This document shows positions 18,001-62,298 of a DNA stretch of 64,000 bases, piece after piece. How positions within the stretch are numbered: position 1 is the stretch's first letter; each line of letters opens with the position of its first letter. The notes beneath the pieces are model-generated. The model searched no databases, was not told where the DNA came from, and was given only the letters and a program-made list of their open reading frames with translations. Source of the stretch: Prostheceraeus crozeri (lineage: Eukaryota > Platyhelminthes > Polycladida > Euryleptidae); assembly GCA_907163375.1 (NCBI GenBank), contig CAJQUW010010458.1:372001-436000 (forward strand), written 5' to 3'. The translations under genes were made by a program, and so were the position numbers.

Positions 18001-20002
18001 ATGTCTGCTGCTCGTGTATCTTTTGTTCCGCCACCGAAATCATTAACCAGTGGTAGTGCCAATCTTGATTCGAGGATAAAGGCCGTGCAAGTGGACATAT
18101 CACCGGTTGCCGAGAGCTCAGGACACGACAAGAAACCATTGTTGGCCCCTTTCCTTTATTGTGATGCCTGTAAGAAATTGTTTCTTTGGTTTAAGAAGAC
18201 AAGAGGACACTGGGTCAACCAGAGTGGGGTCAGTGCAATAAAGCGCCATCTCGAGAAAAACTGCGCACCGGCGACGTCGACGTCCAATCAACTCACCATT
18301 CACCAAAGTTTTCAGTGTGCTCCATCAACAAGCAAGCCTCCTCTTCCGAAAAAAGCAAAAGAACAATGGCAGCAGCATGTAGTGAAGCTTGTTTGTGCCC
18401 ATCCGACTGTGTCCATCAACGCCATGGCTCAAATTGCATCTTCTTGCGCAAACTTCGCTTCTTCGGTAACGCACAGAAACAACAAGATCAATGACTATTC
18501 CATCGGACGAACTTACATTTCATCGGGGTTAATGACTGAGGGAGAGCAATCCCATGCGAAGTTGCAACATCATTTTAGAAACAGTCTCAACGATCCGGAT
18601 GCTGGTGTATCATGCATGATTGATTTTTGGTCTGGAAGACATGAACATCGACTTTCTTATTTTGCTATTGTTGCTTGTGGACTCGATAAAGATTGGCGTT
18701 GGTTCAGTTATCCACTTAAGATTTGTGATTTGGATGATGTACCACACGACGCTTCGTTCACTTTCAAAATTCTCGAAGAATGCATTAAGTCACCGGATGA
18801 TGAAAAACAGGGTGAGCTCTCTCAACCCATCTTTACAGTAAGTGACAACGAACCGAAAATGGTCGCAGCGTTCGACGGCCGTTATCCAACGACGCTGACC
18901 TTGGGTGGTAGAATTGGTTGTACCGAACATGCCTTGTCGACTTGTGTCAAAGACGTTTTCGAGAAGTCTCCACCAGAATTACTAAGTGGCATGCTGTCTA
19001 ATCTGACTTCTGTGGAATCTTTCTATAATGTACGCGACCAAAATGCGAAGCGACTGAAGCGTGCTATTCCTGATAAAAGCACGACTCGACCATGGCGATT
19101 TCAACATTCTCGACTTCGATCTGCGGTGGACAACTACACTGTATTTCTGTCAGAAGACTCATGTATCTGACAATTTGCCACCTTTACCTTCACTGAAATC
19201 TCTGTTGGATATTATGGAAGCCGTCAAGTGCTTCTTTGACAGAGTTGAGGTTAATGAGCCAACTTCTCATCTATCTTACCTGAACTATCTTACTTTGGAT
19301 ATTCACTTGTTCCAAATGCAGATTAGTGAAGAAGTGCCCGCCATCGCTCGGGAGACTTGCTGCCTTCTACGAAATCAGATGAGAAAGAAGCTGTGGCCAT
19401 ATTGTGGTTCATCATTTGCAAAAGCGGCTTTTTATTTGTCAGGCATTGATGTCTGCAACACGGCTTTGGATATGGTGGAAACTCTTAGATATTCCAGCAA
19501 AAAGACCCGAGAATTGCAGGTGTTCATGAATGAATGGGAGCAGGAGATGCAAGGATTCAAATCGAGTGTTGTGAACTATTTGAATCAGCTGTTTGATTCA
19601 ATGCATATATCTGATATCCCCACGGACAAAGTCAGTGATAACCAGGAACGTGAGCCCTCGACATCCAGCGATCCGCTTGAGACATTGTTTGCTCCACGCC
19701 AAAAGCGCATGAAGACTTCGCTTCATGAACAACTTGAAACAGAAATGTTGCTTTTCGAGACCATTTGTGTGGCCTTCAGACATCCGACCAAGGATTTTTG
19801 GAAAGAGAAAGGACCACAAATGAGACTTTTTTCAAAGTGTGCAAAAATTCTTTTTTCCACCCCAGTGTCATCGGCTTCTGTAGAAAGACTATTCAGCGAG
19901 GCGGGGATTCTCTTATCAAAGCTTCGAAAAAGGCTCAAGCCTGACAAGCTAAGCGCTATGATTTACACAAAATATGCTTGTAAGTTAGAGACTGTATTAT
20001 AA
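18001..20002 (+). pseudogene. BED-finger hAT transposase, frameshifted
   Basis: Two frames together encode a hAT transposase. Frame one (ATG at 18001, 389 codons to 19170) has a BED-type zinc finger with C54, C57, H83 and C88. It continues into the hAT RNase H-like region, with SCMIDFWSGRHEHRLSYFAI near residue 205 and FTVSDNEPKMVAAF near residue 277, which should supply catalytic acidic residues. Frame two (usable from about 19110 to the stop at 20002) has the helical insertion and the C-terminal dimerisation signature SSASVERLFSEAGILLSKLR with the LRKRLKP tail. A frameshift between about 19100 and 19165 separates the halves, so it is inactive as it stands. The open frame extends about 45 codons above 18001 without an ATG, so part of the N-terminus may come from an upstream exon. 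Closest known host relatives are ZBED proteins. Confidence 0.92.
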
Positions 20003-21984: not shown

Positions 21985-24900
21985 CTGGAAAATAGAATAA
22001 AAATTCATAGTAAAGATTCGACGTTGAAATTTGGCATTCAAAATATGACAGGAGCACACAATTAAATATTTTGTTTATCTGCTTCGGTTTGCTATAAGTG
22101 TGATTAATACGAAATTGGTGGCACATCGAGGAACCTATTAAGTGGGCAAAAAGGAATTCCTAGTACCTTACAGAGACAGGAAAAAAGTCGTGCGTCGCTT
22201 GCGGATTAATGTGAGTTCCAGCAAAGTGCTTCGGTTGCCAAAATTCCTTCAGATTCGAAGAACTCAAATCATTGCGGACAAGTTTTCTCCATAATGTTGG
22301 CCCTTCCGATCATTATTAAAAAATGCGTGCGAAAATTAGTTCACCTGATGACTCCACAATCCTCTTAGCATTTCTCACTGCACAGTGCATACACTGAATC
22401 GAAGCCAGACATCGATGTGTGTTTTGGTGTGTGCGAAGTGATATCACAGCACGCACACCTCTCTCACTGGCTCTGGTGTCCTCTGCTGACAGCTTATTGT
22501 TTCAATTTCCAATAGCAAGCGATACACGAATTATCCATTCGAGAAGGAGCAAGTTGTCTAATTCTGTGATGTGCCATTTCGATATTAAGGTTACATACAA
22601 TTCTTCCTTTCTAGGAAACCGAAGTGTGCGCAGATGAATCTAATTCTGAGGAACAGGAGAATTCGGCAAAATTTTCAACGATCTATTCGACAGAGTACTT
22701 CTGATTCGAATACAAAGCTACAACATATCAATACTTCAAAGCTAAGATGAACTAACAATTAAGGTGGCATGAAGACCATACATTGAAATATGTTGTTTTC
22801 AAACTTGAAGTCAGATGGAATATCAGGTAAAAGGTTTTATGAATTAGATATGTGCAGTCGGGTTCTGAATCCGATGGGGTTCGGGCTTGACGAAAATAAG
22901 CTACATTTTGAGAAAATAATTATGAACACAACTGAATAAAGTCGATGTTTTTGGCTACATTCACTCACGGTATCCCTCAGCAACTTCAGCATCTTCAATA
23001 TAACAATCATGTCTAGATTTTGAAAGCATCAATGAGTCGTACTGTCGTAGCCTAGCGCCTATTCTTATTCATTTCAAGACATTTGCTATCTCTATATTTC
23101 GCCAAATTTGAATCCAAGAACAGGATGTGTGCTGATTGCATGAAAGTAAACAAAAAAAACAATTACCACAAAACCAAGATATAAGGAATAATGTTAAAGT
23201 AAAGATACTACCTTAGCCCCAGCTAGGCTGACACTTAGGGCGTTACTCTTGACGATGGCCATTCACTGTTATTGCTACTAGTCACTCGAACATGATTATA
23301 CTTATACTATTTCAGTACAGCTACAGTCAAGATACTGACTTTGCGAAGAATTCTTCAATGAAGAGTCATCAAATATTCAGATTAAAAATCTATTTAAGAA
23401 ACACAATTGAAATTATTACGGCATTCATGCTTTAGTGCAACAATCATTGTGACAAAATTATGATTCAAGAGACTTCTGTGATTTAGCAGTGCAATGAAAA
23501 ATGGTTCCGGTGCAAACTGACTCAATTAAGCGGCGAATTCTATTGGAGTGGTGTCTACTCCGTAAATGAGTGGCCATTTAAAATTCATGAGTTTTATTAA
23601 TGAGTTGAATGCAGATAATGTTAATGTTTCCTCTAAATTTCACCTTTGAATAAATGCATTATGAATTTGGGGTCAGTTGCGGTTGGGTTCCATTCAAATT
23701 TTGGCTGCACGACTGATGCCAATAATTGAAATAATGTTCAAATGAATACAGGTTTCCGGACACGTTGACATCGGTTATAAACCAATGATATGAATTACAG
23801 TTGTTTTCTGTAGCATTAATTTCTTTTGTGACACAAGCGAGAGCAGCTGCAAATTATATTATCTTGAAACATCGAATAAATAAGTTTAATAAAGAAGCGT
23901 CAGATCGAATTGTGATGCAAAGGATGTGTGAATAGTTGAACTTGTGCCCACGAATATCTAGGTTATAAGGACCAGTTGCCCAAGATTCAGTTGGCGAGAT
24001 CAAGTCTTCCCTAACGCAGATCAATTGACAAAGCAATCTGAATTACTAAATGAATATTTCGTCACAAATGTGACTAATCAAAGAGTAAAATGTCAGAATG
24101 ACTATTGAATTACCCGTGGAAGGACATTCAATTTGCAGATGACTTTCGATGATCCACGATGATCAATGTAATACAATTGCTCATATTTACGAAACGAGTT
24201 AGGTTAGGCTATCCCGAGATAGTCTAACCTGAGGTTAGATTTGACCTGGGGTTAGAAAACTTATTTATGACGCTGGATAAAACTAACTCGAGATACCCTA
24301 ACCTGAGGTTAAAGTGATTCATACGAATGACGCCAGTCATTACTCACTTGCACTCTGCATCGTAAGAAAGCTAAAAATAAGCTTGAATTCTCCCGCGTGG
24401 ACCAATCATAACGCCTACATATTTTGTTTCTGAGAGTGTCGACTTTATAAACATCGATTCAATCAATCGTACTGAAGCGAACTGAGGAGACCCAGAATTA
24501 TCAAAGATGACTTTCAATGAAGAACTAGATTTGATTTTGATAGAAGGCTACAGAACACGAAAAGAAGTAATGGATTGTAGTGATAGGACAATCCAAGCCA
24601 ATGCTGCCAGGAATTCGGCATGGGGCCAAATAACTGCGGAAGTCAACTCTGTCTCAAACGTTAAGAAAAGCAAGGAGCAAGTTATAGCCAGGTACAAATA
24701 TCTGAATAACAAAGCGAGAAGAAGAAATATAGATAAAAAGAAGCACGTGAAAGGAACTGGTGGGGGTCCGGCGATGAAACTAGATCCAATCAGCGAGGCC
24801 CTTATTGAGACGAATGATAAGGACCCTACTTATTCTGGTCTCCAGGGGGCCATCGAGAGCGGTCTCGAAACTGAAGCAGGAGATTCCACTGAACCAGTTC

Positions 24901-27900
24901 AAGAGCCGCGGACCAGCGAAGAAATTATAGGTGAGTTATTATTTATTTATATGTTTATTGAAGAAATAAGATTAAATAAAATGAGTTATAATTCTTTAAT
25001 AAAAGTTAAGTTTTTTGCAGTTAATTTTAAATAATTTTAAATTCAATTTCATCAACTTCAGGACATTGCAAAATAAATGCGCTCTTATTTATCTAAACGT
25101 TTTCCTAAATGATTAGCTTTAGGGTTTTTTCAAACTCGAATATTTTTTAAATTTTAGTTGCAGTCAATCGAAATCGAAAAGCATCGGGAGATGTTTCAGT
25201 GAATCGAATTCGCCAGCTCCAAGTCGAAGCCCTGGAAACACAAATACAGGCAAACAAAGCCGTAATTGACACATGCGGAAAAATCAACCAACTGATCCCG
25301 AAGTTATCGGATTTGTTCAACAGTGAATCAGACGTAATGAGATATGCATGCAAATGATAGGCTACTTTCAAGAAAGAAAACGATTGATTGGAAATTCTTT
25401 GTTTTTTAACGGAAATTATACATCGAAGGGAATTTTGTAATCCTTAAAAGAAATGTGGGGTCTTTTGTGTTATTTCCCCCCCCCCCAATGTTTAAGCTCA
25501 TCTAGAGACCGTAAAAATAATGCAAACTATATTCAATCAAAACAACTAGCTTGGAGGCCAAAATGCAACAATGTCCTGCATTATCGCATCAAATGGGTTT
25601 AGATTCTGTCTTTCGCACCTACAGCGCCTACATCGCTCACGAGCGCTGATAGTTGCAACAGATTCATGGATAGTGGCCGAATAAATAGAATGAATTGTTG
25701 ACTGTGCTGTGAGTGACTGCGCGGCGAAGGAACGTGCGCTCTAGATGACTCATTACTCGATCACAAATGACCTGAATAACCTTCCCTTAAAGTTTAATGA
25801 TAATTGATTATTTTTACGGTCTCTAGATGAACTTAAACATTGGGGGTGAAATAACACAAAAGACACGAAATGTGTAATCCTTGGACGTTTCAGGTTTTCT
25901 TGTATTAGAAATATTCAAAGTTTAATGAAATTATATTCAATTATACTAGTATTTGAGATTTGGGGAGATAAAGCAAAAATACCAGTAACAAATTTTTGTA
26001 ATTATAGGCAACAATATCACAGATTTTCGGTACAAGATGCTTTCAAAAGTAATTTTGGACAATGTAATTTCGTTTAATAATTCCTGAATTTGATTGGTTT
26101 CCTATAGCATCGTTTGTCGTCAGGTCATTAAACTCAGTCTGATCTGTAGTAGATTCGGTATCTGGTTCCGGGATATCATTGTCCAAAGCAAAATTATGTA
26201 ACACTGCTGCGACTCTAATGTCTCTTAGTATAGTAGGAATTCTTTTTCTCCGACTTGGAAATTTCAAAATGGGAAAGCGACGTTTCCATCGTCCAAAGAC
26301 ATTCCAATTGTTACTCTGGTTTTACAATGTGCATAGTTATAGGCCAATTCCTGTTGATTTGAACAGTTTCGTATGGGGGTCATCAACCAAGGGCGAAGAG
26401 GGTATGCAGAATCACCTAATAAGATACCAAGATTTTGATTTGATTCCATGAAATCCCAAAGTCTACTCGCTCTGAAAATGAAACTATCATGACAGGAACC
26501 AGGCCATTCTGCGATAACATTGGTAAATTTTCCTTTAGCGTCACAAATACATTGGACGTTGATAGAATGGTAATGCTTTCTATTCACAAATCTTTGTTCA
26601 TTAAAGTTAGGTTTCTCAATCGGGATATGTGTCCCGTCCACACATCCTATCACATTAGGAAAATTCCCAAGACTGTGAAAGTCACGTTTAAGCCGTTGAA
26701 TAGAATTAGCATTAGTAGGAAATGTCACCATTTCACGAAAATGATTGTCGATTGAAGAAGAAAACATTTCGATGGCAGCATGCGTTCCTGGTTGAGAGAT
26801 GCCCAGGGTTTCTCCGATAACCGAATGAAAGCTGCCGGATGCAAAATATCTCAAACTCAAAGCAGTTATTTCTTCCACAGAAAGTGCAGAACTTCGATGT
26901 GTAGGTCGTTGACAATCAGATAGAACAATACCACACAGTTGCTGAAATCCATCTTTACTTAACCGGTATTTGTTTAAAAAATCAGCCTCACTGTAATCAA
27001 AGATATCAAAACGATCAAAAAATTGTCTCTCCGCACGTAAGTTTGGATATATGTCCATAAAAGCAGCCATGCGTACCGACTTGAATATGAATCTAACCTG
27101 ACTTCCTCAGGTTAGCAAATTTGTCTATCCTCAAGTGAGACATTCACCTCAGGATACGTTTATCTTGTTTCGAAAATAAACAATCACTGATGTTTCACCT
27201 CAGGTTAAAAAAAAACCTCAGGATAGCTCTGACTCACTGACGTTTCACCTCAGGTTAAAATCCTAACCTCAGGATAGCTCTAACTTTATCCTAACCTGTG
27301 TCGTAAATATGAAGCTATCTCGAGATATGCTATCTTAACCTGAGGTTAGGTTTATCCTGTTTCGTAAATATGGGCAAATGTTTACAGAACACATTGTCAA
27401 ACTTAACATGAAACTCGCGAGGACAAACGCACACATAACACAACAGACATCGATTTATCAATGGTAGAACGAAAACAGAGAGAATCATCGATATTCATTA
27501 CTAAGCAAAAACAATAAAATTCAGAACAGAAGAAACAATATTGATGCTTTGTAAATAAGAAACGTCGAAGGGGTTCGTCAAGTGTAATACTGACTCCATC
27601 AAGCAATTTTGAACTTTTCCCACGGTAAAAATGAAGATATGGCTCATATTTCAAACAGCATCATTCAACTTGAACATTTCGACATCATGTGTGCTTTTCA
27701 TTCACTGTCAAGCCAAGTTAAGTAAGTCTCATGTCCGGCAGGGAATTATGGAACATATTAGGTTTACATGTCAGAAGAGAAAAATCTAAAATCTATAGTC
27801 TAAAATGGTAATTGAATAAAGGAAATAGAAAGGTCGGTTGAATTTTCATTCTGTAGAATCTTGTTTACACTGTACCGCTGCTGTTTGAATAGCGCCAAAA

Positions 27901-44459: not shown

Positions 44460-46600
44460 AGTTTGTCGATCTGCCAGCCCGATTGGGCCGCCTCAACTCG
44501 CCTGACAAATGAAACAGAAAACAGTAGATTCGAAAGCAGTGGAAATGCGGTAGTGCTTATTGGGACACACGCGACACTCACCACTCCCTTTCCTGCACAC
44601 AAAGACCACACGGGATACGCACAGTGAAAACTTCGCTTTGCTTCAAAGCTTTTTTTGCTATCGTCGCACGCGCACGCAGGTGCAACTGACTAATGAAATC
44701 GAAAAATCGATTTTGATGTGCGCGTAAACACAATGCTCTGCCTGCGCTTGGCTAAGAGGACCAGCGCAGCAGGCCGTTCTGTCATTACACCGCATGCTGT
44801 TTTTTGAGCGAACGAGAAGAGCGCGGAACAACACAACGGAGCTCAAAAATTGAAGCTTTGAGATTATTGAGGGGCGCGAGGAAGGACGCTTCCCGAGCTT
44901 TCTTTTTCTGCGAAATGACAACGGAGAGGACTGAATTCAATTCTGGTTCATCTGATATCGAATGAAGTGAACAATATTCACCTTTCTGATGACGGACGTT
45001 CCCATTAACAAGCCAATCGGCAATCAAGTGAATATTTCATCCGCTGATGGAGAGGCAAATGGACTTCTTCCTAACTCAAGAAACAGAGAGTTGCAGGAGG
45101 AGCGAAGAGAGATCTGCTTTCACCAGCACCTGGTCTTCTAGTTACTCTCTGCGCGCGGCTATTCGCATATTCCATACGCCAAATAAATAGCTGATTTTGT
45201 TTTTTGATCACGATATGATGGAGACAATACTAAGAGACAAATCAAAGAGGCGAGGCTAGGGAAAGGTGCAGCATGGACAGCATGGGACGATGATGAAAGA
45301 AATGTTAGCCTTTGCCTTGTTATATCTACGCGGCGGTTATCGTTCTCACATGGAGAGAGTACTGAAGAGCTGATTCGAAAGGAACAAAGAAGGCCCATCT
45401 TTCAAAATAATATCATGCTTCTTTTGACAATTGACAAACAAGAAACAATTCGACAAATGCGAGACAAATTTGCAGCGTTCTCGGCTTTTGGATGGTTTTT
45501 TCGAATGGTTTCACAAAATTCGTATGTGCCTGGTATGTTTCTGGTGTTTTTCTTACCCTATGCCTTTCAGAGGTCGCTGTGCATTATAAAGTTGGCATAT
45601 AAGCAATATATGCAAGCAAACCAAGGTATCTGGCTGTTTCTGGCTGCCAAACAATTATTTTTTTTACAATCTACAAATGTACACCGGAAAAAAAGACAAT
45701 CCAGTCATCACGGACTTGGAGTCACGGACTTGAGAGGATTTGACCACATGATCTAGAAAATTCTCTAGACAAAATGGACCACTGACATGACAACTGACTT
45801 TTTTTTTTACTTCACTTTTCTCTCGCAAAAAGGCTATGACTCAAAAGGGGAACTCTGAAAAAAACAGAGAGGAAGTTCCTCGCAGATGAAGATCTACAGG
45901 GCCCCGCAATCTACAGGGCCGATTTCCGATTATTCAACCTCTCGATTACAAAACCCTCCTCTCCAAAAATGCAAATGCACCTATTGTGTCCATCTGCAAG
46001 AAATGATCTTGTCCTTCTCCGGTTGTTGATCCCATGAAGACCAGACTTGTCCAGACTGAGGGAAACTACAAGACGGCAAATGGGAATGGTAGATACAGCA
46101 AACCAAAAGGTGGGATGCTAGATGGGTGAATATACGGTGTAATACATGGCACACAAATGGTTTTGCAACCTCTTAAATTTGTGTGTGTTAATTGGCATAT
46201 GTGTTGTTGTGGATAAATGCATATGTGTTGATTTGAGAAATTTCTCACTCATTGGGGAATAGACAAGAATGACAAAATAGGGGATTTTTTGGAGCGGTGC
46301 ATAGGAGAGGTCATGGCAGTTTTTTTGCCAAGACAAAAAGCGGCACGGCATTGTTGAGAAAGCAACACGAAAAAAGAGAGAGCAACACGAAAAAAAGACA
46401 GAAAGAAAGATGTCGGGAAGAACGAAAAAAAAACGAGAAAAACCCCAAATGCCTGTATGTTGGAAACATTCGTGTGATGAACATTCTAACTTGTGACTCG
46501 TAAGAAATTCTTTTAGTATTCCGTACTTTTTGTGCATATTACGAACACATCCCTTTCATCAATTGTCAAGTCTTTTACTTAAGTTTAATGAACTCAAATG
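44460..46600. other. No gene seen; possible insertion within the LINE
   Basis: Local composition is richer in CG dinucleotides near 44570-44900 (GCACGCGCACGCAGG). Small direct duplications occur: TCACGGACTTG twice near 45707-45731 and CTACAGGGCC twice near 45894-45918. Frames up to 139 codons (46118-46537, minus strand) lack motifs. As LINE blocks lie on both sides, this 2.1-kb piece may be another insertion, but I found no terminal repeats. Confidence 0.35.
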
Positions 46601-46604
46601 AAGT

Positions 46605-47425
46605 CATTGGAGACTATTCCTAATTACACGCTGACACCTGGCATTACACAGGCCTTTCTCCCACTGAAGTTTGGAGGTCTCGGATTGAGGAGAGCTATTC
46701 ATGTCTCTGCCAGCTTTCATTGGGTCAGTTAATGGCGTTGCTAGGACAGTATCAGAAATGCTCCACGATTTCCAATCGGACCCTGATCCGTCTTCTAGTG
46801 AAGCAAGACGGGAAGCAAAACTCCCCGGAAATGTTGCACCTACAGGAGAACAAATCTAATATCAGAAAGCATGGGATCTACCGTTGGTAAATAATCAATT
46901 TGATGCGCTTCTGAATTCAACATCCAATGTCCAGACAAAAAAAGCAGACTCCTATCTGCTTTATCCCTTGGAGTTGGTGCTTGGCTCAACGCTATCCCAC
47001 TTCCAAGTCGTGGCCTCAAACTAGACACCGAACAGCTACGTACATGTATATCAATAGCTCTCCGACTTGGGGATAATACTCGTATTTGTGCATCTTTCAT
47101 ACGCAAGTGTGGATCGAACATCGACAGTTGTGGCACGCATGGTCTGAGTTGCCGCTTTAACTCAGGAAGAACTGCACGACATACAGAGGCCAACGATATA
47201 ATTCGAAGATCGGTAGTTTATACCGGCTTGCCTGCTATTCTTGAGCCGCACGGTCTCTGTCGTGATGACGGGAAGAGGCCGGATGGTGTAACTCTAACCC
47301 CCTGGAGCAGAGGTAGGCAGCTTGTCTGAGACTTCACATGTGTCGAAATGTTGCCACAAGCAACCTCAAAATTTCAAGTCTCGAAGGGGGAAAGTTGGCT
47401 TCACGAGCGGAGGACAAAAAGCGGA
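46605..47425 (+). pseudogene. LINE C-terminal region, left of the RAG1-like transposon
   Basis: With several frameshifts and stops this gives NYTLTPGITQAFLPLKFGGL, then GVGAWLNAIPLPSRGLKLD, LRTCISIALRLGDNTRICAS, THGLSCRFNSGRTARHTEAN, LEPHGLCRDDGKRPDGVTLT and PWSRGRQLV. This block order (GAWL...P....GL.L, a CxxC/HGLSC zinc-like motif, RPDGVTL.PW..G) is the conserved C-terminus of a widespread invertebrate LINE. The reading frame AEDKKR stops at the transposon target site (47425) and continues at 51990. Confidence 0.88.
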
Positions 47426-47681
47426 CACACCCGGCGGGAAGCCCTTTAAGAAGTGAAAAAAAGTGCAGCCAAAAGTAAAGGTATATTTCAATACTGCTTA
47501 CCTAGCTGTGTTTGAAAATGTGTGTCCTTAAAATCTTCTATGCCCTTCTTGCCAGAAAATCATAGGTATCGATTTGTCATAAAAACTGCTCTAATGTATT
47601 TTCCTATAGAAATTAGCATTTGATTGGATTGTGCAGACAGCATAAAAAAGTGCAGGCATAACTAATAGTATATATCAACTA

Positions 47682-48678
47682 CACTGTAAATCGCTCAGTA
47701 CCAATCACATACGAAGGATGCATACCAAAATATTTTTTTGGTATATTTCTGTATGATCTTGGTATATATTTGTATGCTTTTCGCATGTTATTTCAAGTGT
47801 GGTATGCTTTACATACTAAAGCCATACCAGCACAATGTTAAAAGAAAGCATCAATCATGTCCAAAGTATATTGATTTAAGGCTTTTTGTCAATAAAGATC
47901 ACACTAATGCTACTACTGCTTTGTAAGTAGTGAGATAATGACATTTTATAGTCAAACTAACAATACTGAATTCGATTTTAATACATGCAAGTCCGAGGCA
48001 TTTCATAAATAATCAATAAGTATTTGACCACCAACAATTATGCATTATGTAATTTTGAAATGAAGCATATTATCAATCTGAAATAAAAACACATTGTAAT
48101 TCATGAATGCAAAAATAGTTATGTTTGAGATATATAAGTCAACATGGTTGCTGAAAAGTTATCGTTTTATTGAAATGATGTTTATCAATTTAGTTCAAGG
48201 AAATGAGATAATTATGAGTCTTGTGAATGCTATAAGACAAGTTGCAAGATGACATGCGGCTTTAATTCCACGACAAATCTAATCTAGTTAAATGCCACAC
48301 TTTCACAAAGAAATGTTCACGGCTGGTATTACTGGAAACAAGTTATTTGTAAGTAATATCTAGTATAACATATTTTTTGCCATATGACATAAAGCTATTC
48401 ATACGAAAGACATACGAAACACATACCAATTTGCATCGGGTCTCGTATATAAAACATACTAAGAATTCGTGTTTCAACGTAAAACAGCCAATCACAGTTA
48501 GCATAGTTCGTATCGTTTACATACCAATCACATACGAAAGTAAATGGCCATTCGTATGAAAAACATACCAGATTTCTTTATATATACCAGAATCTCGTAT
48601 CAAATGTTGGTTTCAAATTGTATGTAAACTTATTGGTATGTGTTTGTATGTAATTTTCGTATCCAGCGATTTACAGTG
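47682..48678. mobile_element. TA-flanked 997-bp element inside the transposon arm
   Basis: The termini CACTGTAAATCGCT and their inverse are flanked by TA (47680-47681 and 48679-48680). The uninterrupted right arm of the host transposon (about 51733) keeps the empty site with a single TA, so the insertion and its duplication are directly demonstrated. TA duplication and CAC-type short ends suit a Tc1/mariner-derived non-autonomous element. The interior is full of CATACGAA/CATACCA words, and TACCAATCACATACGAA occurs near both ends in direct orientation (47698 and 48520). No gene is carried. Confidence 0.92.
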
Positions 48679-49330
48679 TATGACTGCTTGGAGGTATTTG
48701 AAAAAGCATATCTTAAGGTGCCTCTATGCCCTTTTAGCCAGAGAATCATAGATATCGACTTTTCATGGTTGGTAGGCCTATTCTCAGTGACTATACAAAT
48801 TAGTATTTGAACGAACAGTGTGTGAGCAGTATGAAAAATGTGCAGACATAAATAATAATACATTTCAAACATTCTGGATTAATGGTTTTTAATTATGTTC
48901 GTCTTTAAAATCTTCCATTATGTTCTTTTGTTAGAAAATCATAGATAATACTTCTGGCTGAAGATACAGAAACGAAGTCAGCTCTGCTTTATCTGATATG
49001 CATTGATTCATTGAGTGGTCGACAAAGTGTCATTTCACTCATTACTGACATATAAAGCTAAGCAATCATTGAAATAGTAAAACTTATCTGAGATGTCTTT
49101 GTCAAAGTCTGTAAACAACACGCTCGCGAGAAGAAGTGTTGATTGTCTAGCCAATCAGAATACGAGAAAGGTGAACCATCGATTCGTTGTCTGTCACCAT
49201 TTTACATAGAAATTGATGAGAATAAATCTTTGATATCAAGAACATCGTTCGCTTCAAGTAGACAATCTCTTTCTAAGCCATTTCATAGCCTGCAGAGCTT
49301 CACCTCGTGTGTGCATCTTTTGGATCATCA

Positions 49331-51330
49331 ATGATAATGGTGCATAGCACAGAAGCTTGTGGCCTTGAAGAGAACAGACGCAAAGTTTGTATAGTTTGTA
49401 TGAGGATGAGCAATCGCAACATTACGGAAACAATAATGACTCGTCTTCAGGAGAACTTCATTTCGAATTATTATTGTTCAGATGATAGGCTTCCATGCGT
49501 AATCTGCAGCAAGTGCAGCAACGATCTTCGTGATGTTTCAAATGGTAGCAAATCTTCCAACATTTTACCAGACGTATTTGATTATAGTGTCGTTGTTCCT
49601 AAATACACGGCTGCCACTCGTTCTGGAGTTAAACGACTATGTGATTGCTGTATATGTGAAGTAGGTCGGCAAAGTGGTACCAGAGTAGTTCATCATCGAA
49701 TTGGCAGGCCTCCGCATGATTACTCCACGATCCGTCCAGTTCGAACTGGTGTTGCTCGACTGTGTATGGATTGTCTTTCTCCTGTGGGGCTTAGTGTTCC
49801 TCATAGATGCAATGTTTCATCTTTGAGAGGAAACATAAAGGCCATCTGCTCATCATCTGATTCGAAAACACAGCAGCAAGTGGCAGGTACTTCGATTAAT
49901 ATTCAGAAAGAACAGCAGAAATCCCAAGTTATTGAACTACGCACTTCAAATAGAGGCTCCATGACAATTAGTGTTGATAAAGCGTTGACTCCTTCAGTAT
50001 CAGCGAAACAACTGAACAATTTTCAGATCTCTACAAACTTAGCAAACACAAAAATGAAAAGAACCGTAAAACCATTTCTACGCGATGTAAGTGGCCGCAA
50101 ATTTGTAGAATCACATAGTGAGACTTACCTGCAGGACAGAGATAGGGCATTGTCTGATTATTTTTCAATTCGTTTGATCAGTTCGAATGAAGTGGATACC
50201 GATCCACTTGCTGAAATACCTATCATATTTTGCAATGATCTACCTGGCTTCCTTCTGCATGTGTGCTGGAAACGCAACATCAACACAGCTGATTGCAGTG
50301 TCAAATTTGGAATAGATTCAGGAGGCGGATTCTTAAAAATTTGCTTTACCATTTCCTGTAGGATAGAAAGTAGCAGAGCAATGTCTGGTGGCAGCTTAAA
50401 GGAACTCATGATCATTGGAATAGCTCCTGGATTGAAGGAAAATTACTCTAATATAAAGTTTATGATTGAATTATTCAACTTCAATGATATACACATGCCA
50501 ATGACGTATGCCGTTGACCTCAAAATGGCAAACATTTTAGGGGGCATACAAGGTCATGGGAGTACTTTTCCATGCATATGGTGCGAATGTCCAAAGAGCT
50601 TGTTTCACAATGCTGCTTCCAAATCTTTTCCGATCAGAACGATAGGCTCAGTAAAGCTTCAATCCGATTCTTTCAAAAAAAGTGGCAAGGTTGACGCGAA
50701 GGAATATAAAAATTCCGTTCATGAGCCTCTTTTAAAAGGTGACGATCATCAAATATTTATTAATATTCTGCCACCCCCAGAGCTTCATCTCTTGCTACGC
50801 ATAACAAACAGATTATTCAAAGCACTTCAGGAAAAGTGTCCAAATATTGCACAGAACTGGCTAAATCATTGTGGGATTGTTATACCGAAGTTGCATTCAG
50901 GTGAAATGAATGGAAATACATGCCGGCGCTTGCTAAAGAAAGTTGATTTCTTTGCAGATATTTCTGACCCTGAACTTCCAAAATTTCTGACACTTTTAGA
51001 AAATTCAGTCGTGTCGTGAATTCGTGCTTCGGCAATCATTGGGATCGAGAAAAATTCAAAAGAAAATATCGACGCGTTCTTCGATGCGGACCAAAAATTA
51101 CAGATTCCCACGACAACCTCTGCTCACGTAACATTTGTACATACCTCAGTTTTGTCTCTTCAAAAGGTCTGGCTTTGGATTGTACAGCGAGCAGCAATCC
51201 AAGAGTGTGCATTTCGATTTCAGCTCTGTTTGGAAACATGGAGGCAATGTGAGACTGAATCATCGCCAGTACTCCGAAAAACTCTTGTGTTGTGCGATAC
51301 AATGGACGACATTTATGATTTCTGTATAAT
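49331..51330 (+). pseudogene. RAG1/Transib/CMC-like DDE transposase, decayed
   Basis: A long open frame runs to a stop at 51019 (first ATG 49331; open from 49307). The N-terminus has paired-cysteine zinc motifs: CIVC...CVICSKC, then CDCCIC and CMDC...HRC. The core carries a first Asp in FGIDSGGGFLKICF (near residue 336), a second in AVDLKMANILGG (near 404), then 18 residues and CIWC; the D-x18-CxxC spacing equals that in RAG1. LPPPELHLLLRITNRLF corresponds to the RAG1 block after the zinc motif and HSGEMNGNTCRRLLKK to its MNGN..RKL block. The expected third residue, Glu in GLYSEQQSKSVHFDFSSVWK, lies downstream (51173-51232) in another frame after at least two frameshifts. In RAG1 and relatives this fold cuts DNA at CAC-starting signals. 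Inactive as read. No RAG2-like partner is present. Confidence 0.78.
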
Positions 51331-51989
51331 TCAAATTTCGACGTTCCATAATTCTGTGATTCACATTTGAAATTCTACGTTTTGATACTCAGTAAAGGAT
51401 TGTTTGTTCTTGAGTCACATTCTGATGTTTTCAGGTCATGAAAAAAATCCAAATTAAACGTTATGGAAGATAAGGCTCATAGTGAAATCATAGATATCTA
51501 TGACAATAGAGACGAACATAATTAAAAACCATTAATCCAGAATGTTTGAAATGTATTATTATTTATGTCTGCACATTTTTCATACTGCTCACACACTGTT
51601 CGTTCAAACACTACTTTGTATAGTCACTGAGAATAGGCCTACCAATCATGAAAAGTCGATATCTATGATTCTCTGGCTAAAAGGGCATAGAGGCACCTTA
51701 AGATATGCTTTTTCAAATACCTCCAAGCAGTCATAGTTGATATATACTATTAGTTATGCCTGCACTTTTTTATGCTGTCTGCACAATCCAATCAAATGCT
51801 AATTTCTATAGGAAAATACATTAGAGCAGTTTTTATGACAAATCGATACCTATGATTTTCTGGCAAGAAGGGCATAGAAGATTTTAAGGACACACATTTT
51901 CAAACACAGCTAGGTAAGCAGTATTGAAATATACCACTTTGGCTGCACTTTTTTTCACTTCTTAGAGGGCTTCCCGCCGGGTGTGCGGA

Positions 51990-52201
51990 GAAAGTATGAA
52001 AGTCTGCAGCATTCATACGTGTTCTGTCCAATTAAAGCAGAAACACTTGGTGCCTGGGGAATGGATGCGCTGACGATGATCAAGGCAATGGCAAAGGAGT
52101 TGCAGACGTCACGGGCGAAGCTCGGGCAACAACGTTTCTTCAAGCAGCGCCTGAGTCCTGCAATACAAAGAGGCAATGTAACCCAGTGTCCAGAGTCCTG
52201 A
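51990..52201 (+). pseudogene. LINE C-terminus, right of the RAG1-like transposon
   Basis: The frame continues the LINE block broken at 47425: RKYESLQHSYVFCPIKAETL, then GAWGMDALTMIKAMAKELQT and FFKQRLSPAIQRGNVTQC, with a stop at 52201. The KY..L...F.P.A.ETLG..G / L.QR.S.A.QRGN pattern is the C-terminal end of this LINE family. The 3' untranslated part follows without a clear poly-A tail. Confidence 0.88.
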
Positions 52202-55729: not shown

Positions 55730-56970
55730 GTGCACTCTCTCTCTCTATACTTCGATTAATATTTTATATCATATGTAAATATGCATAGAATTTGTCAATG
55801 CCCTCACCGCCTTTGAAGCAAAATACAGAATTTTGAATTTTGAAAGCTTGCAGTCCTATATTTTAGTGGGATAACCTATTGTCAGTGCTACTCATTAGAG
55901 TGCTTTCAAGTGATCAGCATCTGCCTGACTTGGCAAATTCGCAATGTCATATTATATATATATATATATATATATATTCGTGTGCATGACAAGACAACTC
56001 AGGACAGATATGATTAGGTAAAAAAGACACATAAAAATAAAAGTAATAAGTCATGCTCAGACTTAAAAGGAAGTTTGATTAAAAACGGACACTAGCCAGC
56101 CAAGTACTGGCCACTTCAGAGGCAGAGTGAAGTTCAGCGAGGCCGCCGATGCCGACACGAAGAGCTGTGACAGGGCAGTCCTTCACGATATGTACCAGTC
56201 TGAGTCTGACCACAGTCGCACAGCGGTTGTGATTAATTCATATTGTGACAATGTCATATTGATTAATTATTATATCAATTACTCTTTCATTGTTTTTAGA
56301 ATTATGGCTTTTAGAATTTATAGACACGTGGGACTACGAGGTAGAGGGTAGAATATTTCTCTACTAAATGTGTCCGTGCAGCCGGCTTAATTTTATTGAA
56401 AATCCTCAAATTTGCATCATACTCTGAGGGAAAGTTGATTTCACTTCAACGTCATGCAATCTTGGAGATTCCCATGCTGATCAACATATTTCTGAAATGT
56501 AACTATTTATGGTGTATTGAATCATGAAAGTGAATAATTAGTCGTTATCTCTGGACACGATGTGATGTTTCAATATACATCAACTGAACACAATGCAATA
56601 ACGAGATGACATGAACATCGCTTACCTACTTATAACATTCAGATACAGCTTGATACTTTATAATATCCATGAGACTATTCAAACAGCAATGAGTTCAATC
56701 AATACGAAGAGAAGAAATCCAGTGACTCATTTCTCATTCTCCCTTCATACATAGTAGTTCCGTAACGACGTATACAACAGAGATTTACGTTAGCGAGAAT
56801 GCTTTGAAACGCCTGTTGTGTCTCACGGTCATGCATCGTAATTTCTGATAATAAAACGGGTTGCCTCGCGTCACTTTATTCAGCTACCTTGTTTGATTGA
56901 CCAGATTTACAGCCTGGTCAGTGCAAATTGAAGCATCTCTCTTTGAAGAGACCTGTCACCAGCAAACAGT
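55730..56970. other. Intergenic, upstream of the SLC16-like gene
   Basis: A TA microsatellite lies at about 55953-55977. A 74-codon frame at 56127-56351 is not recognised. The promoter or 5' exons of the SLC16-like gene may lie in the right half, but no clear core promoter is visible. Confidence 0.4.
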
Positions 56971-56974
56971 GATA

Positions 56975-58351
56975 ATGCTGCTCTTCGAGGAAAATGTGGC
57001 ATTTGTGGACGAATCATATACCTGGCGCGTTCCTGTTGCTTCTGCCCTCACGAATGGATTAGCATTTGGCTTTGCAAAGTGCACCGGTCTCTTAGTTATT
57101 GGGATGAAAGAGGAGGAATTCCATTTGACTTCGCATAAAATTCTCATATCTATGGCTCTCAACTTTTGCCTCATGGGATTATTATCCCCACTAATAAATG
57201 CACTAACTCAACGACTTACTGCACGTCTTGTGGCTTCAATTGGGAGTCTCATCTGCTTCTTCTCTTTGTTGATATCATCGCAGTGGCTGTCGCCTCATAT
57301 CTACTTATTCATTATTGGAGTTCTTCTTAGCATTGGATTTGCTTTCGTGTTTTCTCCACCTTTGCTACTAAATGGAGTTTGCTTTGACAGATATCGGACC
57401 AGGTCTGCTGGAGTCTGCTTTGCTGGTGAGAGTCTTGGATGCACGCTCCTGCCTATCCTCGTAAGTTTCTTGATTGACCGATACACCGTGAGAGGAGCTT
57501 TATTGATCATTAGTGCACTGTTTTGTCATATCATTCCCACTGCAATAATTCTCCCAACTACGGTTATGCGAAGAGACACTGGAGAGGTTCTGACCGAACA
57601 AGCAATTGTTTGCTCTTCACAAGAAAGACATCGAAGAGAGGACGAAATAGCCAGACAATCATATATCACAGACCGTTCTGTCTCTGTACGAGAAACTTTA
57701 CCTGCACCACTTTATTCAATTCTTGCATTTACAATTGCCTTGATGTTAATGTCATTTGCCTACTTCAATCAAGTCACTGTTTATCCACTTCTTGCGAATT
57801 CAAATGGCATTGATAGGAGTACTTTATCGCTCGTAATTGCTGTCAATGGCATCGTGGAATTCTTCAGTCGCTTAGGAACTGGATTTGCCTGTGAACACAT
57901 GACTCCTTTCTGGAAAGTGTCTGTCTTTGGAATATCAATGGGCACATTGTGTGTATTTGCTCAACTTATTGGAGAATTTTCTGGAAATCTACCGTTCCTG
58001 TTTGCCTACGTCTGTGTTTTAGGTCTAGTAGGCGGCTGTGTGGGTGCCATGTGGACAGTGGTTGTCACCATTCTTGTTGGAGTAACGAATTCAGCAAGAT
58101 CTTTGTCCTTTGTACTCATGGCAATGAGCTTATTTACTCTTATTCTTCTCTGCTCAATGGGTTACATACGAGAAGCAATCGGATCATATGCGTGGATCGT
58201 GAGAATTGGAGGCATTAGTGCCTTTATTGCCATGCTCATACAGTTGATAGTAGTTGCTCCCGTTGTGCGAAAGCTGAAAGGGGAATCAACTCGAAAAAGT
58301 CGGAAAGTGTTGCAAGAGATTAGTAAAATGTTGGATCAACCTCCGGAGTAA
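56975..58351 (+). CDS. SLC16-like (monocarboxylate transporter family) MFS carrier
   Basis: An intact frame of 458 residues from ATG 56975 to the stop at 58351, no intron. The protein has about 12 hydrophobic segments in two sets of six, separated by a charged loop (about residues 195-255, rich in R, E and D). The N-terminal SLC16 signature (D-G-G-W-G-W) is replaced by DESYTWRVPVASALTNGLAFG, with the same downstream spacing. The TM4-6 region SIGFAFVFSPPLLLNGVCFD then RYRTRSAGVCFAGESLG and IDRYTVRGALLI fits the SLC16 pattern (Y/F...R..A.G...AG...G). SLC16 members move lactate, ketone bodies, aromatic amino acids or thyroid hormone across the plasma membrane, often proton-linked; the substrate here cannot be inferred. 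The frame is open up to at least 56897, and a possible acceptor (GATTTACAG, near 56910) means upstream exons may exist. A candidate AATAAA lies at 59058. Confidence 0.85.
   Translation: MLLFEENVAFVDESYTWRVPVASALTNGLAFGFAKCTGLLVIGMKEEEFHLTSHKILISMALNFCLMGLLSPLINALTQRLTARLVASIGSLICFFSLLISSQWLSPHIYLFIIGVLLSIGFAFVFSPPLLLNGVCFDRYRTRSAGVCFAGESLGCTLLPILVSFLIDRYTVRGALLIISALFCHIIPTAIILPTTVMRRDTGEVLTEQAIVCSSQERHRREDEIARQSYITDRSVSVRETLPAPLYSILAFTIALMLMSFAYFNQVTVYPLLANSNGIDRSTLSLVIAVNGIVEFFSRLGTGFACEHMTPFWKVSVFGISMGTLCVFAQLIGEFSGNLPFLFAYVCVLGLVGGCVGAMWTVVVTILVGVTNSARSLSFVLMAMSLFTLILLCSMGYIREAIGSYAWIVRIGGISAFIAMLIQLIVVAPVVRKLKGESTRKSRKVLQEISKMLDQPPE

Positions 58352-61734: not shown

Positions 61735-62298
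<564 letters not shown>

What the first reader, a model, noticed from the sequence alone, without database searches (positions are those of the whole stretch)
49331..51330. Transposase with RAG1-type catalytic layout in a CAC-ended transposon
The sequence shows a first Asp in a glycine-rich turn, a second Asp followed by 18 residues and CxxC, a PPPELHLLL block, a MNGN block, and a Glu in a YSEQ..S..H context. Order and the D-to-CxxC spacing equal those of vertebrate RAG1, and the N-terminus has several CxxC zinc pairs. Known relatives (Transib, RAG1, CACTA/Mirage/Chapaev) share CAC-starting ends. This copy does not fit plain Transib because the target duplication is 4 bp. It may be a separate branch near the origin of the RAG recombinase.
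Basis: partly seen in the sequence, partly recalled or inferred. Interest (0 to 1): 0.85.

Follow-up and report, generated by a model that had tools for sequence, protein, structure and literature searches.

The report
Broken copy of a Chapaev transposon
A decayed cut-and-paste jumping gene, of a kind already named Chapaev whose cutting enzyme is a distant cousin of the antibody-gene recombinase RAG1; ordinary in itself, though a clear illustration of that kinship.

Summary
The observation largely holds. A complete 4560-bp DNA transposon spans 47426-51985: ends CACACCCGGCGGG.../...CCCGCCGGGTGTG, inverted repeats of about 480 nt, and a 4-bp target duplication, CGGA. Its reading frame 49331-51016 carries, in RAG1's order, Asp, Asp-x18-CxxC, LH and MNGN; H-x4-H and a YSEQ block follow beyond an in-frame stop and a frame change. 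Alignment to mouse RAG1 puts the second Asp, CxxC, LH and MNGN on their RAG1 counterparts (39 of 10,000 shuffles score as well). This supports distant kinship, but the Pfam, NCBIfam and solved-structure searches name no relative.

A new branch near the origin of RAG is not needed. CAC/GTG ends, 3-4-bp duplications and the motifs C(2)C, LH and H(4)H are published hallmarks of Chapaev (CMC group), and print already groups Chapaev with Transib/RAG1 and gives it a zinc-finger N-terminus. The 4-bp duplication speaks against Transib/RAGL, and there is no room for a RAG2-like gene. The copy is coding-dead, and its left repeat carries a later 1-kb insertion. No Chapaev sequence was available to compare, so the filing rests on hallmarks and the subgroup is unknown. 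New member of a known kind; low interest.

The parts
47426..51985 (+). whole transposon, 4560 bp including a later 997-nt insertion
   Evidence: inverted ends, flanking CGGA on both sides
47422..47425 (.). left copy of the target duplication, CGGA
51986..51989 (.). right copy of the target duplication, CGGA
47426..47681 (+). left terminal inverted repeat, outer piece, begins CACACCCGGCGGGAAG
47682..48678 (.). later insertion of 997 nt inside the left repeat, inverted ends CACTGTAAATCGC, TA duplication; the right repeat shows the uninterrupted site
48679..48907 (+). left terminal inverted repeat, inner piece
51507..51985 (-). right terminal inverted repeat; 5 mismatches and 6 gap columns to the left one, 2 of the gap columns being the TA duplication
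49331..51019 (+). transposase main reading frame, 562 residues and TGA; four N-terminal CxxC pairs, D329, D396, C415/C418, H486, MNGN 526
51020..51163 (+). same frame after the TGA; holds HVTFVH, an H(4)H, at 51125-51142
51132..51326 (+). C-terminal piece in a different frame with YSEQQSKSVH

Best explanation
A structurally complete but coding-dead copy of a Chapaev (CMC group) cut-and-paste DNA transposon in what looks like an animal genome. An intact relative would make one transposase: a cysteine-rich N-terminal part that presumably binds the long inverted repeats, and an RNase H-like DDE core with a zinc site built from C(2)C and H(4)H, as in RAG1, that cuts at the CAC ends and joins them to target strands staggered by 4 bp, leaving the CGGA duplication. 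Shown here: ends, inverted repeats, 4-bp duplication, motif order, in-frame stop, frame change. Inferred from family knowledge: fold, DNA binding, chemistry, and that the element moved by its own family's transposase.
For: CAC/GTG ends, about 480-nt inverted repeats and an exact 4-bp CGGA duplication. C(2)C, LH and H(4)H in order after the second Asp, the motif set given as characteristic of Chapaev in PMC4079192 (section 14 read), which also gives generally 3-4-bp duplications and invariable CAC/GTG termini (passage). RAG1 alignment anchored on D708, C727/C730, H795 and MNGN (39 of 10,000 shuffles). Cysteine-rich N-terminus, as PMC4411706 describes for Chapaev (section 6 read).
Against: No direct comparison with any Chapaev sequence: the pattern scans of viral and bacterial/archaeal contigs and the tblastn of plasmids and phages found no relative, and no Repbase or Dfam is at hand. 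Pfam and NCBIfam give no family for the whole frame; phmmer against solved structures lists no RAG1 or Transib up to E 10. The N-terminal 175 residues align to RAG1 at chance level (268 of 500 against RING plus core, 1407 of 2000 against the recalled N-terminus), as do the C-terminal pieces (241 of 500). The profile alignment is weak (7 of 200). The third catalytic acid is not secure. One copy only: a 4-bp match of flanks has a chance of about 1 in 256.
Confidence: 0.85

Rival explanations
1. Another CMC lineage (CACTA/EnSpm or Mirage) rather than Chapaev, working by the same cut-and-paste chemistry.
For: CAC ends and the C(2)C and H(3-4)H motifs are shared across the CMCT clade (PMC12730594, passages).
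Against: EnSpm is described there with 3-bp duplications; here 4 bp match and a 3-bp duplication does not. The LH motif fits Chapaev as listed in PMC4079192, though I did not test whether CACTA shares it.
Confidence: 0.07
2. A divergent Transib or RAGL element with an atypical 4-bp duplication.
For: D-x18-CxxC, LH and MNGN coincide with RAG1; RAGL duplications are 'almost always' rather than always 5 bp (PMC7204232, passage).
Against: 4-bp duplication; D-D spacing 66 against 107; no database-level similarity to RAG1; only about 420 nt before and 180 nt after the coding stretch remain inside the repeats, no room for a RAG2-like gene, and no other start-to-stop frame in the element exceeds 88 aa.
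Confidence: 0.03
3. An undescribed lineage between Chapaev and Transib/RAG1.
For: RAG1 register including MNGN together with Chapaev-type duplication length; no reference sequences available to exclude it.
Against: No feature found here lies outside what is described for Chapaev; the RAG1 similarity is weak.
Confidence: 0.04
4. The RAG1-like motif order is coincidence in an unrelated transposase.
For: Pfam and NCBIfam are silent; the profile alignment is reached by 7 of 200 shuffles.
Against: Motif order, the 18-residue spacing and the register fall together (39 of 10,000 shuffles), in an element with CAC ends.
Confidence: 0.01

Closest known systems
Chapaev superfamily of the CMC group (Kapitonov and Jurka 2007, as cited in PMC4079192 and PMC4411706)
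   Same: CAC/GTG ends, 4-bp duplication, two Asp then C(2)C, LH, H(4)H, cysteine-rich N-terminus
   Different: no difference shown; subgroup not assignable; a simple C3HC4 RING expression does not match the main frame, and RING is described for only two Chapaev subgroups
Chapaev3 (Merrow, Garfield, Conan; PMC4079192)
   Same: motif set and CAC ends
   Different: Chapaev3 elements examined there have 3-bp TWA duplications; here CGGA
Transib, RAGL/ProtoRAG transposons and vertebrate RAG1
   Same: order of motifs, D-x18-CxxC, LH, MNGN, H(4)H, CAC ends
   Different: 4-bp duplication, D-D spacing 66 against 107, no RAG2-like gene, similarity near the limit of detection
N-RAG-TP of Aplysia (passage in PMC8355894; the original paper not seen)
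   Same: an invertebrate transposon protein with a cysteine-rich part compared with the RAG1 N-terminus
   Different: described there as composed entirely of RAG1 N-terminal-like sequence; here the N-terminal part aligns to RAG1 only at chance level

Membership tests
[quoted passage not shown]
Chapaev (CMC) | 3- to 4-bp target site duplication | tested here: met
   CGGA, in the one copy available
Chapaev (CMC) | C(2)C, LH and H(4)H motifs in order | tested here: met
   C415/C418, L485/H486 in the main frame; HVTFVH at 51125-51142, beyond the TGA
Chapaev (CMC) | DDE triad | tested here: inconclusive
   two Asp; the third acid is either the Glu of YSEQ, 49 nt past the last His, or a position 61 nt past it that reads Lys here and is nearest to RAG1's 20-residue spacing
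Chapaev (CMC) | Chapa zinc-finger domain at the N-terminus | tested here: inconclusive
   four CxxC pairs; no model or reference to compare; alignment to the recalled RAG1 N-terminus at chance level (1407 of 2000 shuffles)
Chapaev (CMC) | clustering with known Chapaev transposases | not testable with these tools
   no Repbase or Dfam; no relative in the collections scanned
Chapaev3 | 3-bp TWA target duplication | tested here: not met
   CGGA
Transib / RAGL | 5-bp target site duplication (almost always, PMC7204232) | tested here: not met
   4 bp match, 5 bp do not; one copy
RAGL / ProtoRAG | neighbouring RAG2-like gene inside the element | tested here: not met
   no other start-to-stop frame above 88 aa in the element; about 420 and 180 nt of unassigned space inside the repeats
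Transib / RAG1 | sequence similarity to the RAG1 core | tested here: inconclusive
   39 of 10,000 shuffles, 1 of 500 and 7 of 500, 7 of 200 by profile, absent from the solved-structure list up to E 10
Transib / RAG1 | RNase H fold with the acids assembled | tested here: inconclusive
   single-sequence model, mean pLDDT 33, unusable

The most novel reading that the evidence does not exclude
An undescribed CMC/Transib subgroup, with long inverted repeats built of diverged ~190-nt units and a RAG1-type MNGN block, that would fall between Chapaev and the Transib/RAG1 clades and so help order how RAG1 gained its parts.
Probability: 0.05. Interest if true: 0.5.

Novelty: new member of a known kind. 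Interest (0 to 1): 0.2.

Why it matters
It gives one anatomically complete Chapaev-type copy and shows in raw sequence the motif order shared with RAG1. The evolutionary point, that Chapaev is grouped with Transib and RAG1, is already in print (PMC4411706). Only if a tree placed this family between Chapaev and RAG1 would it bear on the origin of V(D)J recombination.

Tried and rejected
Relatives were sought by peptide-pattern scans of viral contigs and bacterial/archaeal genome contigs and by tblastn of plasmids and phages: none found, as expected for an animal transposon; these collections hold no animal genomes by design. The first 19 nt of the element in viral contigs: 0. No whole genome is held for the window, so other copies could not be examined. 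AlphaFold2 on residues 235-562, single sequence: mean pLDDT 33, not used further; no fold search was run. Joining the flanks did not discriminate between duplication lengths by open frame: each of the six collapse lengths tried (0, 2, 3, 4, 5, 6) left some frame open for about 100 codons. That the target was a retrotransposon reading frame is a recalled pattern, not tested. Sub-threshold Pfam matches in pieces (TNFR_c6 0.052, DUF6998 0.077) were taken as chance, as were the four weak solved-structure matches (best E 0.18). Rfam: no match in the window. Yuan and Wessler 2011 and Kapitonov and Jurka 2005 are not held. Seven literature searches; I make no claim that anything is absent from print.

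Full report
The element. The finding lies inside a complete DNA transposon, 47426-51985. Its outermost inverted repeats begin CACACCCGGCGGGAAG and end CTTCCCGCCGGGTGTG. The bases directly outside are CGGA on both sides: of the lengths 2 to 7 tested, only 4 matches. The inverted repeats are long: 47426-47681 plus 48679-48907 on the left (485 nt) and 51507-51985 on the right (479 nt), with 5 mismatches and 6 gap columns between them, 2 of the gap columns being the TA duplication of the inserted element. The left repeat is split by a 997-nt insertion, 47682-48678, with inverted ends CACTGTAAATCGC and a TA duplication; the right repeat shows the uninterrupted site. Within the repeat a 35-nt sequence recurs at 47457, 47644 and 48834, that is 187 and, discounting the insertion, 193 nt apart; these may be transposase-binding units (inference). 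No other place in the window matches the 16-nt end within 3 mismatches.

The protein. The frame 49331-51016 gives 562 residues. It has CxxC pairs at residues 20, 56, 104 and 145, D329 in GIDSGGG, D396 followed by 18 residues and CIWC, PPPELHLLL with H486, and MNGN at 526. It ends at TGA 51017. The same frame then holds HVTFVH, an H(4)H, at 51125-51142; a different frame, 51132-51326, holds YSEQQSKSVH. So this copy is broken by at least one stop and one frame change.

Kinship to RAG1. A Smith-Waterman alignment of residues 291-562 with mouse RAG1 589-1013 (letters from the solved chain printed) pairs D396 with D708, C415/C418 with C727/C730, LH with LH (H795) and MNGN with MNGN; 39 of 10,000 shuffles reach its score, 52; reversed sequences score 28. 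Of 19 stop-to-stop frames of 120 aa or more in the window this one scores highest, 52 against 44, 43 and 42 for the next three, so the margin is modest. Against the recalled human core 1 of 500 shuffles reach the score, and 7 of 500 when all 562 residues are used. A profile alignment finds the same register, with 7 of 200 shuffles reaching its score and a reported probability of 0.86%. Against kinship: the N-terminal 175 residues (268 of 500 shuffles against the RING plus core; 1407 of 2000 against the recalled N-terminus) and the C-terminal pieces (241 of 500) align no better than chance; phmmer against solved structures lists no RAG1 up to E 10; Pfam and NCBIfam name nothing for the whole frame. 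Kinship is thus supported by motif order and register, not by database-level similarity. The fold is untested (pLDDT 33).

What it is. PMC4079192 (passages; abstract; [quoted passage not shown] These are met here except that the third acid is not secure. PMC4411706 (passages; [quoted passage not shown] PMC12730594 (passages) groups EnSpm, Mirage, Chapaev, Transib and others as CMCT, sharing C(2)C and H(3-4)H with RAG1. Chapaev3 does not fit (TWA duplications). Transib and RAGL do not fit (5-bp duplications, 'almost always', PMC7204232, passages); RAGL also lacks room for its second gene here. The best filing is Chapaev outside Chapaev3, subgroup unknown. That filing rests on hallmarks; no Chapaev sequence was compared.

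How it would work. By analogy with the CMC/Transib families, an intact transposase binds the inverted repeats, cuts at the CAC ends and inserts with a 4-bp stagger. Only the DNA products (ends and duplication) are shown; binding and chemistry are inferred. The two inverted repeats differ little, so the copy is not very old, and the later insertion is younger still (inference).

Verdict. The case for a separate branch near the origin of RAG came from not filing a 4-bp duplication under Chapaev.

Noticed in passing
47682-48678: 997-nt insertion with CACTGTAAATCGC ends and TA duplication inside the left inverted repeat; internal CATACCAATCACATACGAA-type repeats; longest forward frame 62 aa. Tc1/mariner-like by the TA duplication (inference).
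   Followed up: partly
18001-20002: Two overlapping frames; the second carries the hAT dimerisation region (Pfam 2.6e-11), the first matched no Pfam family at E 0.01. Probably a broken hAT transposon.
   Followed up: partly
24507-27070: Myb/SANT-like frame (+, 4.9e-10) and a DDE_Tnp_4 transposase frame (-, 2.2e-27) close together; the pair resembles PIF/Harbinger elements (recalled knowledge).
   Followed up: partly
56897-58351: Reading frame of a major facilitator superfamily transporter (Pfam MFS_1 8.2e-25).
   Followed up: partly
61735-62262: Homeodomain reading frame on the minus strand (Pfam 6e-23), consistent with an animal genome.
   Followed up: partly
46600-47421 and 51990-52201: Flanks of the transposon look like the 3' part of a decayed non-LTR retrotransposon reading frame (recalled pattern, not tested).
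   Followed up: no
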